Assembly: GCF_900106035.1 (NCBI RefSeq)
Contig: NZ_FNUC01000004.1
Coordinates: 1,674,001 to 1,738,000 of the forward strand
Length of the DNA: 64,000 nucleotides
Source: Jiangella alba
GTDB taxonomy: Bacteria; Actinomycetota; Actinomycetes; Jiangellales; Jiangellaceae
Direction of reading: 5' to 3'
Notes under the pieces: model-generated
What the model was told of the DNA's origin: nothing
The model's input: the letters and a program-made list of their open reading frames with translations, nothing else
Databases searched by the model: none
Program-made: the position numbers and the translations under genes
Shown here: positions 45,251-49,989 of the stretch, one piece after another
Layout: every line of letters starts with the position of its first letter
Position numbering within the stretch: position 1 is the stretch's first letter

Positions 45251-45874
45251 ATGCGGATACGGGGAATCGCCGTCGGCGCGGCGGCGTCGGCCGTGCTGCT
45301 GGCGGGGTGTGAGGCGCCCGGCGATCCGCCGCTGGGCCTGCTGGACGTCGACGGCGCCGAGACCGGCACGGTCACCGGCGAGCCTCCGACGGGTGACCCG
45401 TCCGAGCCGCCCACGGGTGACCCATCCGCCCCGGCCGAGAGCGACTGGGCGCTCGATGTCGCCGGCGAGGCGCCGGAGGAGCCGGCCGACCTCGCGGTGT
45501 TCGAGGCGTACCTCGACTTCTGGCGCGCCGACCTCACCGCGGTGAGCCTGCCCGACCCCGCCCACCAGCCGCTCCTCGACCTCTCCGCCGACCCGCAGCG
45601 CCAGCGCGTCGTCGACGTCGCGGAGCAGCTGCTGGCCGACGGTCACCGCACCATCGGCACGCTGCGCCTCGAACCGGCCGTGGTCTCGGTCAGCGGCCCG
45701 ACGGCGGCCGTCCAGGACTGCCTCGACGGCCGCGAGACCTTCGACGTCGACGCCGAGGGCGCCGAGGTCGCCGACAGCCGCGGCGACCTCCTGCCGGTGC
45801 TGGTCCAGCTGGTCGCCGACGGCGACTCCTGGATCGTCGCCGACGTGCAGGAGTCCGACCATGACTGCGGTTGA
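45251..45874 (+). CDS. putative lipoprotein, unknown function
   Basis: 207 aa from ATG 45251 (GAGGTGGGCGGA site). Lipobox LLAGC puts the lipid on Cys20. A short repeated linker (EPPTGDPS twice) precedes a domain of about 140 residues with helix VFEAYLDFWRADLTAV and strands ending DGDSWIVADVQESDHDCG, the general plan of small NTF2-like lipoproteins. The interrupted secreted-protein gene starts 55 bases after its stop and may be co-transcribed. Confidence 0.72.
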   Translation: MRIRGIAVGAAASAVLLAGCEAPGDPPLGLLDVDGAETGTVTGEPPTGDPSEPPTGDPSAPAESDWALDVAGEAPEEPADLAVFEAYLDFWRADLTAVSLPDPAHQPLLDLSADPQRQRVVDVAEQLLADGHRTIGTLRLEPAVVSVSGPTAAVQDCLDGRETFDVDAEGAEVADSRGDLLPVLVQLVADGDSWIVADVQESDHDCG

Positions 45875-45929: not shown

Positions 45930-46175
45930 ATGCGACGCGCACGAGTGGCCCTGCTCACCGCCGTGACGACCGGCGCCCTGGCCCTGCTCGGCACGGCGCC
46001 GGCCCTCGCCGGAGTGGGCGACGACCAGGTCGGCGGCGACGCCGACGAAGGCGGGCTGACCGCCGTCGCCGTCTCGCTCACCGGCAACGGCCTCGACGGC
46101 GGCGACGGCTCCGGCGGCGACGGTGGCGGAGTGTCCGTCAGCGTCCGGGGTGTGTCTCCCGGGTCTCGGCCGTAG
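45930..46175 (+). pseudogene. 5' half of a secreted-protein gene interrupted by a short element
   Basis: Starts at ATG 45930 behind GGGAGA. Signal peptide RRARVALLTAVTTGALALLG ending in APALAG, then a Gly/Asp-rich low-complexity stretch. After GVSVSV (46131-46144) the frame runs into a 167-bp inverted-repeat element and stops at 46175. Removing 46145-46313 joins this frame to 46288-47136 and yields an uninterrupted 345-residue protein (VSVSV followed by PSPCYWEVME). Confidence 0.8.
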
Positions 46176-46311
46176 CGAGCGGCGTTCAGGTGTATGCCTC
46201 GCAAGGCCGAGGAGGGAGTCATAGCGGGGTTCTATGACGACTGACGAGAACGCAGCGAGGCGCCGCCTGGGCGTCGCGCAGTAGGCCATGGACCCGGGAG
46301 ACACACCCCGG
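46145..46311. mobile_element. MITE-like 167-bp element with perfect 21-bp terminal inverted repeats
   Basis: The left end 46145-46165 (begins CCGGGGTGTGTCTCCCGG) is the exact complement of the right end 46291-46311. The flanking dinucleotide GT occurs on both sides (46143-46144 and 46312-46313), as expected of a 2-bp target duplication. There is no coding capacity. The interior has a CATA-N9-TATG hairpin (around 46220-46236). Excision of element plus one GT (169 bp) restores the host reading frame. The right end supplies the ATG for the downstream fragment. The parent transposon family is not recognised. Confidence 0.8.
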
Positions 46312-47136
46312 GTGCCGTCGCCCTGCTACTGGGAGGTCATGGAGTTCGCCACCGGCGAGTGGGCGTACCAGAACTGGGCGCTGGAGTACGACGACCTCGA
46401 CGACCCCGTCGGCCCCGGGAACGAGCAGACCTTCGTCTACCCGCCGCTGGAGGAGATCGAGGCGCACCGCGACGAGCCCGGTCACTGGGCCTTCGGCACG
46501 CTGCTGAACGTCGACGGCGACTTCGACGCGGCCGGCGAGTGCTTCGATCAACTGGTCGCGGCCAACGGCGGGGCGCACACCCTCTGGGTGCCCGAGGGCA
46601 GCACGCCGCCGCAGCCGCCCACGCCGCCGGTTCCGCCGGAGCTGCTGGCCGAGGTGGCGTTCGAGCATCTCGCGATCCCGGCGCCCGACACCCTGCGCAA
46701 CCCGGCGGCCAGCTCCTACGTCAACCTCGCGACCTGGTTCTGGGTGGCGCCCGGCGACGGTCCGCGCGACGGGTTCGTCCGGCTCGAGGTCACGGCCACG
46801 GCGGGCGACAACTCCGCCACCGTCGTCGCCGACCCCGAGCGCCTCACGGTCCGTTCGTCGGCGGGTCCGTCGGCGGGCTGCACGGCCGAGCAGGCCCGCA
46901 CGTCCTACGCGGCCGGCACACCCCAGTCGGCCGGCTGCAGCCTGCTGCACACCCGCTCGTCGGCCCGGATGCCGGGGCTCGCCTACACCGTCACGGCCAC
47001 CGGCGCCTACGCCGCGTCGTGGTCCGGGCAGGAGGGCGGCACCCCGGTGGCGGGCGGCGGCCTGGGCGCCGTGGTCTCGCCGCCGACGTCGCTGGAACTG
47101 CCGGTCGCGGAGGTCCAGACGGTCGTCATCCGCTGA
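46288..47136 (+). CDS. 3' part of the interrupted secreted protein (282-aa reading frame)
   Basis: The ATG 46288 lies inside the right end of the inserted element, so the first 8 residues (MDPGDTPR) are element-derived. The genuine protein resumes at VPSPCYWEVMEF. It contains acidic and aromatic segments (GEWAYQNWALEYDDLDD), a Pro-rich stretch PPQPPTPPVPPE, then a beta-rich domain (AVAFEHLAIPAP..., SYVNLATWFWVAP, VRLEVTATAGDN) with two cysteines. This resembles ATP/GTP-binding-protein-type secreted proteins common in actinomycetes, but I cannot name a family. Without its signal peptide it is unlikely to be exported. Confidence 0.6.
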   Translation: MDPGDTPRVPSPCYWEVMEFATGEWAYQNWALEYDDLDDPVGPGNEQTFVYPPLEEIEAHRDEPGHWAFGTLLNVDGDFDAAGECFDQLVAANGGAHTLWVPEGSTPPQPPTPPVPPELLAEVAFEHLAIPAPDTLRNPAASSYVNLATWFWVAPGDGPRDGFVRLEVTATAGDNSATVVADPERLTVRSSAGPSAGCTAEQARTSYAAGTPQSAGCSLLHTRSSARMPGLAYTVTATGAYAASWSGQEGGTPVAGGGLGAVVSPPTSLELPVAEVQTVVIR

Positions 47137-49542: not shown

Positions 49543-49550
49543 CCCGGCGA

Positions 49551-49989
49551 CCCTGACGCACATGGCGGGCGGCCCCGAGGCACGGTCGCGGCCCGGTGCC
49601 TCACGATGGGTTGAGCGGGTGTGCCGGCGACCCTGACGCACGCGGCGGGCGGTCCCGAGGCATTGTCGCGGCCCGGTGCCGATGCCGCCGAGTCGGTGTA
49701 CCGGCGGCCCTGACGCACATGGCGGGCGGCCCCGAGGCACTGTCGCGGCCCGGTGCCGATGCCGCCGAGCCGGTGTGCCGGCGACCCTGACGCACATGGC
49801 GGGCGGCCCCGAGGCATTGTCGCGGCCCGGTGCCGATGCCGCCGAGCCGGTGTGCCGGCGGCCCTGACGCACATGGCGGGCGGCCCCGAGGCACTGTCGC
49901 GGCCCGGTGCCGATGCCGCCGAGCCGGTGTGCCGGCGACCCTGACGCACATGACAAGAGGCCCCGAGGCATGATGGGCCGGTGCCTCAC
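49551..49989 (+). repeat. 77-bp tandem repeat array, about six units
   Basis: Units begin (at CCCTGACGCA) at 49551, 49631, 49708, 49785, 49862 and 49939; the first period is 80 bp and the others are exactly 77 bp. Two variants alternate: one with GCGACCCTG and GGCATTGTC, the other with GCGGCCCTG and GGCACTGTC. The last unit runs into the start of the DUF885 gene, and the first unit carries a copy of that start (GGTGCCTCACGA). It fills the 438-bp gap after panD; ORFs in it on both strands are artefacts of the repeat length. Confidence 0.92.

What the first reader, a model, noticed from the sequence alone, without database searches (positions are those of the whole stretch)
45930..47136. A 167-bp inverted-repeat element splits a secreted-protein gene, and removing it restores the frame exactly
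Perfect 21-bp terminal inverted repeats (46145-46165 and 46291-46311), a GT duplicated at both edges, no coding capacity, and a host ORF that becomes one open 345-codon frame when 46145-46313 is removed. This is a clean, probably recent insertion of a MITE-like element. The right end even supplies the ATG and first codons for the downstream half. The parent transposase, and whether the element can excise or splice at RNA level, are unknown.
Basis: partly seen in the sequence, partly recalled or inferred. Interest (0 to 1): 0.82.

Follow-up and report, generated by a model that had tools for sequence, protein, structure and literature searches.

The report
Mobile hairpin element with swapped ends
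A 161-base mobile DNA element has broken a secreted-protein gene in an actinobacterium, and it belongs to a large group of mobile hairpins that keep one intricate folded core while their ends come to resemble those of different, unrelated jumping genes.

Summary
The insertion is real: a MITE of 161 bp (46148-46308) flanked by a 2-bp CG duplication, not 167 bp with a GT duplication. Four intact Jiangella orthologues show that removing 163 bp, not 169, gives the ancestral length. The genome has 16 near-full copies; in 9 of 16 a predicted gene ends exactly at the element's edge. The ends match an IS5-family element of a sister Jiangella at 14 of 18 bases. No IS with these exact ends was found, and this genome gave no PF13358, PF13359 or PF13340 transposase.

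Beyond the finding: the middle of the element, about 90 nt, recurs in 80 of 296 sampled genomes of the class, 24 of 114 genera, inside MITEs with many different ends. Some of those ends match IS5, and one matches IS630 closely. The core folds into a hairpin whose loop of alternating G-C and G·A steps has a central pair that flips G-C to C-G in register (38 of 39 clusters paired). The same strand folds better in 39 of 39. My reading: a strand-specific structured module, probably RNA, kept while ends change. Its function is untested.

The parts
46148..46308 (+). MITE repeat unit, 161 bp
   Evidence: alignment of 16 own-genome copies
46146..46147 (.). left copy of the 2-bp duplication (CG)
46309..46310 (.). 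right copy of the 2-bp duplication (CG)
46148..46165 (+). left terminal inverted repeat, 14 of 18 to the IS5-family element L230
46291..46308 (-). right terminal inverted repeat
46182..46274 (+). conserved structured core (model R1, 104.6 bits)
46201..46215 (+). left strand of the internal loop, GCAAGGC-X-GAGGAGG; X is C at 46208
46218..46238 (+). apical stem-loop
46239..46256 (+). right strand of the internal loop, ...CGA-Y-AACGCAGC; Y is G at 46248
45930..46147 (+). 5' part of the split secreted-protein gene, with the signal-peptide-like start (an ATG at 45861 is also in frame)
46309..47136 (+). 3' part of the split gene
46288..47136 (+). 282-aa ORF that starts at an ATG inside the element; no Pfam or NCBIfam family

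Best explanation
This is a non-autonomous transposon (MITE) that a transposase with IS5-type end specificity moved in trans, usually to CTAG-like sites with duplication of TA. This copy landed inside an open reading frame and cut the signal peptide off a secreted protein. It belongs to an actinobacterial superfamily of MITEs held together by its core and not by its ends: a hairpin with an internal loop of alternating G-C pairs and G.A steps, carried by MITEs whose ends resemble IS5 and, in at least one case clearly, IS630. I infer that selection keeps the core as a folded single strand, most likely as RNA at the 3' end of host transcripts, because many copies sit at stop codons. There it would make insertions tolerable or useful (transcript end, stabiliser) while the ends diverge or are exchanged to follow the transposases at hand. 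Shown: repeat family, edges, empty sites, stop-codon siting, varied ends, core conservation, covariation, strand asymmetry. Inferred: the mobilising transposase, selection on the folded strand, RNA as the active form, the 3'-end role.
For: 16 near-full copies in the genome and strong matches in 7 of 12 Jiangella genomes. Four intact orthologues without the element. In 9 of 16 copies a predicted gene ends exactly at an edge; at 8 such gene ends, 18 of 18 orthologue comparisons stop 0 (13) or 1 (5) codon away. Window ends 14 of 18 to an IS5-family element present five times in G010, 0 of 3000 shuffles as good. Core in 80 of 296 genomes and 24 of 114 genera. 15 diverse elements: 92.7% of cells pair, against 72.1% in shuffles and 33.9-46.8% slid; 32 of 43 pairs change on both sides. 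Loop pair X-Y standard in 38 of 39 clusters (30 G-C, 7 C-G, 1 G-T), 0 of 20000 permutations as good; the same strand folds better in 39 of 39, mean 17.7 kcal/mol. Ends close to IS5 in L064, L066, L169 (15-16 of 18) and to IS630 in L103 (17 of 18).
Against: No IS with exactly the window's ends was found, and the own genome has no PF13358, PF13359 or PF13340. Of 19 MITE ends tested against IS ends, 7 had no match better than chance at 0.05, and only L103 matches IS630 strongly. TA stands on both sides of only 5 of 16 copies, and this copy has CG; 5 of 9 sites compared gave no clean TA empty site. No expression data were available. G.U against A.C changes do not clearly favour RNA (12 against 4). 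With DNA parameters the strand gap is only 3.5 and 5.0 kcal/mol in the two elements tested. Shared ancestry is not removed from the permutation tests.
Confidence: 0.65

Rival explanations
1. The core has no role as a folded strand. All these MITEs descend from one old palindrome, DNA-level processes such as hairpin-templated repair keep the arms complementary, and ends change by drift and recombination.
For: Inverted repeats can stay complementary without selection on a strand (general knowledge). Outer stems and ends covary as well as the core does.
Against: Loop bases that are not complementary stay nearly fixed while stems change. One strand folds better in 39 of 39. The X-Y pair flips within one end type (L070 and L072) and within one genus (L161 and L168, L162 and L163).
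Confidence: 0.2
2. The core works as DNA: a strand-specific hairpin or protein-binding site that helps transposition with whichever transposase binds the ends.
For: The core is found in mobile elements with different ends, so a transposition aid that does not depend on the ends would be selected. The loop could also form in single-stranded DNA.
Against: None of 85 transposase-bearing loci scanned has the core inside an IS; one strong hit lies 1.7 kb outside the IS and one weak hit (E 0.07) also outside. IS ends were located in only part of those loci. Predicted DNA folds show a small strand gap.
Confidence: 0.13
3. The insert is removed from RNA like an intron, so the protein is still made.
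For: Both halves of the frame are open, and the long stem would bring the two junctions together.
Against: No Rfam intron or ribozyme. Most other copies lie at gene ends, where removal would serve no purpose. A recent insertion also leaves open halves.
Confidence: 0.02

Closest known systems
IS5-related bacterial MITEs, e.g. MITEPsy1 of Pseudomonas syringae (PMC3189936, passages seen)
   Same: Short, no genes, terminal inverted repeats like those of an IS5-family element, insertion at CTAG or YTAA.
   Different: MITEPsy1 is 100 nt with 18-nt repeats and the paper derives it from one IS by its ends; the passages seen describe no conserved folded core shared by elements with other ends.
IS630/Tc1-mariner-derived MITEs (recalled, e.g. 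Correia elements)
   Same: Palindromic, TA duplication; several core-bearing MITEs start with GTG or AGAGG in CTA/TAG context, as IS630 elements here do.
   Different: The window element's ends are IS5-like (14 of 18) and not IS630-like (7 of 18).
REP/REPIN elements (recalled)
   Same: Many palindromic copies, often beside gene ends.
   Different: REPs are much shorter and depend on single-strand RAYT transposases; these have 18-bp or longer terminal repeats and a 2-bp duplication. RAYT genes were not searched for.
Structured RNAs of Rfam 15
   Same: Conserved stems with compensatory changes and a fixed internal loop.
   Different: No family above its gathering score in the window stretch or in 15 loci with divergent cores; one chance-level hit (sul1, E 0.6) in the window.

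Membership tests
MITE | short, repeated, no transposase gene | tested here: met
   161 bp; 16 near-full copies; ORFs over it are open-frame accidents that run in from the flanks
MITE | terminal inverted repeats | tested here: met
   21 bp perfect, 18 within the unit
MITE | target-site duplication and empty sites | tested here: met
   CG here; four intact orthologues give the exact empty length; 5 of 16 own copies keep TA on both sides; TA once in at least one empty site for 4 of 9 copies compared
MITE | ends shared with an autonomous IS | tested here: inconclusive
   similar (14 of 18) to an IS5-family element in a sister species, none identical found
IS5-family derivative | IS5-type ends and CTAG/TA target | tested here: inconclusive
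   ends similar; CTAG empty sites for some copies; the window site is not TA
IS630-family derivative | IS630-type ends | tested here: not met
   7 of 18 for the window ends; no PF13358 in the own genome
Known structured RNA or intron (Rfam) | score above the family's gathering threshold | tested here: not met
Structured RNA (new) | compensatory changes beyond controls | tested here: met
   relatedness is not fully removed
Structured RNA (new) | transcription of the conserved strand | not testable with these tools
   no expression data held

The most novel reading that the evidence does not exclude
The core is a new class of mobile structured RNA: a G.A-stepped hairpin module that spreads through actinobacteria on the ends of at least two unrelated transposase families, settles at stop codons and acts at the 3' end of many host transcripts, so that what persists is the RNA and not the ends.
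Probability: 0.35. Interest if true: 0.82.

Novelty: new variant of a known kind. Interest (0 to 1): 0.62.

Why it matters
MITEs are normally read as shrunken copies of one IS, known by their ends, with expendable middles (general knowledge). Here the middle is the conserved part and the ends vary. This gives a testable case of a non-coding module that outlives its mobiliser. If the core works as RNA, many actinobacterial genes, Streptomyces included (44 plasmid records), carry an unrecognised structure at their 3' ends.

Tried and rejected
Parent transposase in the own genome: PF13358, PF13359 and PF13340 gave none. PF01609 gave 10 copies of two IS types; a scan of those loci for the window-type terminus found no pair bounding them. 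Other transposase families were not searched.

Partial hits as a parent: L088-L090 are short remnants, and L091-L094 and L101 are variants (about 205-285 bp where both ends are seen) with other hairpins inside; no transposase between ends. A lone terminus in L086 stands at the end of a predicted gene.

Hammerhead-like reading of CTGACGAG near the loop: rejected by eye, because divergent copies lose it.

G.U against A.C changes as a test of RNA against DNA: inconclusive, 12 against 4 outside two conserved positions.

Phages: no match for the window element or a Streptomyces element. Viral contigs: 3 stretches with the core pattern, fetched and not read. Plasmids: 1 record with the window element, 44 Streptomyces records with a Streptomyces element, 7 Streptomyces records with an element of G064.

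Literature: ten searches; no listed title or abstract opening describes this family. The library lacks most subscription papers. One paper was seen in passages (PMC3189936); none was read whole.

Limits of the core statistics: the first 52 cores came from a pattern that fixed GC.AGGC and AACG..G and allowed only G or C (or GCC) for X and C, G, T (or GC) for Y, with no link between X and Y; the other 29 came from model R1. So bases fixed by the pattern cannot count as conserved, and variants with a longer X-Y insert (L069, L103) are outside the count. 81 parsed cores were cut to 39 clusters by an 88% similarity limit. One search uses a MAFFT alignment, but its structure was predicted from the same alignment. 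The slid control was run in one direction only.

Full report
1. What is in the window. Copies share a 161-bp unit, 46148-46308. This genome (7.68 Mb, 4 contigs) holds 16 near-full copies at 92-100% identity and 11 partial matches. The genus is Jiangella: the orthologue scan names J. muralis and J. ureilytica, whose contig lengths equal those of sister genomes G009 and G011 (inference). Strong matches occur in 7 of 12 Jiangella genomes, weak single ones in 3, none in 2.

2. Edges and duplication. The host gene has five close orthologues in the genus (L129-L133, 79-95% identity over the 3' part). Four are open across the site and lack the element; they read GTG-CAG-GTG, GTC-GAG-GTA, GTC-CAG-GTG and GTC-CAG-GTC where the window reads GTC-CGG-GTG after removal of 163 bp. 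The fifth, in J. muralis, has a deletion across the site that shifts the frame (read). Among own copies, 5 of 16 have TA on both sides, the window copy has CG on both sides, and 10 differ in one or more of the four flanking bases. Nine copies were compared with sister genomes: for L002, L003, L007 and L014 at least one empty site has a single TA; for L006, L008, L010, L011 and L015 the empty sites are not clean TA sites, and the right side of L014 lacks the A. L002 is also occupied in G010. A 2-bp duplication, normally TA, fits best but is not proven for each copy.

3. Where copies sit. With a simple coding-score gene caller, 9 of 16 own copies have a gene ending exactly at an element edge. 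At eight such gene ends (seven copies) all 18 orthologue comparisons have the stop codon 0 (13) or 1 (5) codon away; three further gene ends a few bases from an edge gave 6 of 6 at 0. So these are insertions at stop codons, not truncations. A simple reason: CTAG in a GC-rich genome is often the end of a TAG codon, and TA plus the element's leading G restores TAG (inference). The window copy lies inside a frame and is an exception.

4. Which transposase. IS ends in related genomes are of two kinds. IS630 (PF13358; L111 is NF033545) begins GTG, AGAGG or CTGA in TA context. An IS5-family element (PF13340; L230 is NF033580) begins GGGAGTGTCTGACGGATC between CTA and TAG, with five copies in G010. 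The window ends match the latter at 14 of 18 (0 of 3000 shuffles as good) and IS630 ends at no more than 7 of 18. The own genome has no PF13358, PF13359 or PF13340, so the copies are stranded here or were moved by something I did not search.

5. The core. In sister families the window element matched only by its middle. Reading those places showed the same middle inside other ends: CTAGTGTC, CTAGTGGTCGG, TAAGAGGCCGCG, CTAGGGCGTGTCTGA and more. A covariance model from 15 cores (R1) found the core in 80 of 296 genomes of the class and 24 of 114 genera, with at most 14 candidates scored per genome. With up to 150 scored, 28 genomes chosen because they were positive held 1 to 33 matches. Named Streptomyces plasmids carry it, 44 records. 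Of 19 MITE ends compared with IS ends, seven match with fewer than 1 in 1000 shuffles as good: six with IS5 (the window, L064, L065, L066, L165, L169) and one, L103, with IS630 (17 of 18). Five are weaker, and seven show no match better than chance at 0.05. So the IS630 side rests firmly on one element, with weaker support from L170, L160, L068 and L069. None of 85 transposase-bearing loci has the core inside an IS; the one strong hit (L243) is 1.7 kb outside, and IS ends were located in only part of these loci.

6. Why I call it structured. On 15 diverse whole elements 92.7% of cells pair, against a shuffled mean of 72.1% and 33.9-46.8% when partners are slid; 32 of 43 pairs change on both sides. 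On 39 clusters from 81 cores the outer helix has 246 of 312 standard pairs in register, against 99, 165 and 146 when slid by 1, 2 and 3. The loop alternates single G-C pairs with GA/GA steps. Its X-Y pair is G-C in 30, C-G in 7, G-T in 1 and broken in 1; 0 of 20000 permutations reach this, relatedness not removed. Both states occur within one end type (L070 and L072) and within one genus (L161 and L168, L162 and L163), so the flip happened more than once. RNA folding favours the same strand in 39 of 39, by 17.7 kcal/mol on average; with DNA parameters the gap is 3.5 and 5.0 kcal/mol in two elements. These 39 are not independent, since the loop is shared. Still, a plain double-stranded palindrome has no reason to prefer one strand.

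7. Verdict. The insertion itself is an ordinary MITE event. The family is unusual: it is held together by a folded core while the ends change. Function is open; my leading guess is a 3' RNA structure, with a DNA signal or no function as rivals. Rfam shows no family above threshold, and ten literature searches listed no description (named in Tried and rejected).

Noticed in passing
L091-L094, L101 (G009): Variants of about 205-285 bp keep the left-end half of the element but carry other hairpins (CAGGTGAC...GTCACCTG) in place of the core's right side.
   Followed up: partly
L125, L130 (J. muralis): The host gene has a deletion across the insertion site, between imperfect direct repeats, that shifts the frame: a second, independent loss of the gene.
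   Followed up: partly
L123 (own genome C4, next to copy L012): An IS of the 309-aa PF01609 type sits directly at the CTAG edge of a MITE copy.
   Followed up: no
L230 (G010): The autonomous IS5-family element itself lies between two ORFs whose stop codons coincide with its edges.
   Followed up: no
L020 (own genome C4:2701492-2701615): The own genome also holds a core-bearing MITE of another end type.
   Followed up: partly
L064, L095-L099 (G020): Runs of N inside or beside several core-bearing elements, perhaps assembly gaps at strong hairpins.
   Followed up: no
window 49544-49970: Tandem array of a 77-bp unit, 5.5 copies, 90% matches, in which ORFs stay open on both strands.
   Followed up: no
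L283-L285 (viral contigs): Three viral contigs contain the core pattern.
   Followed up: no
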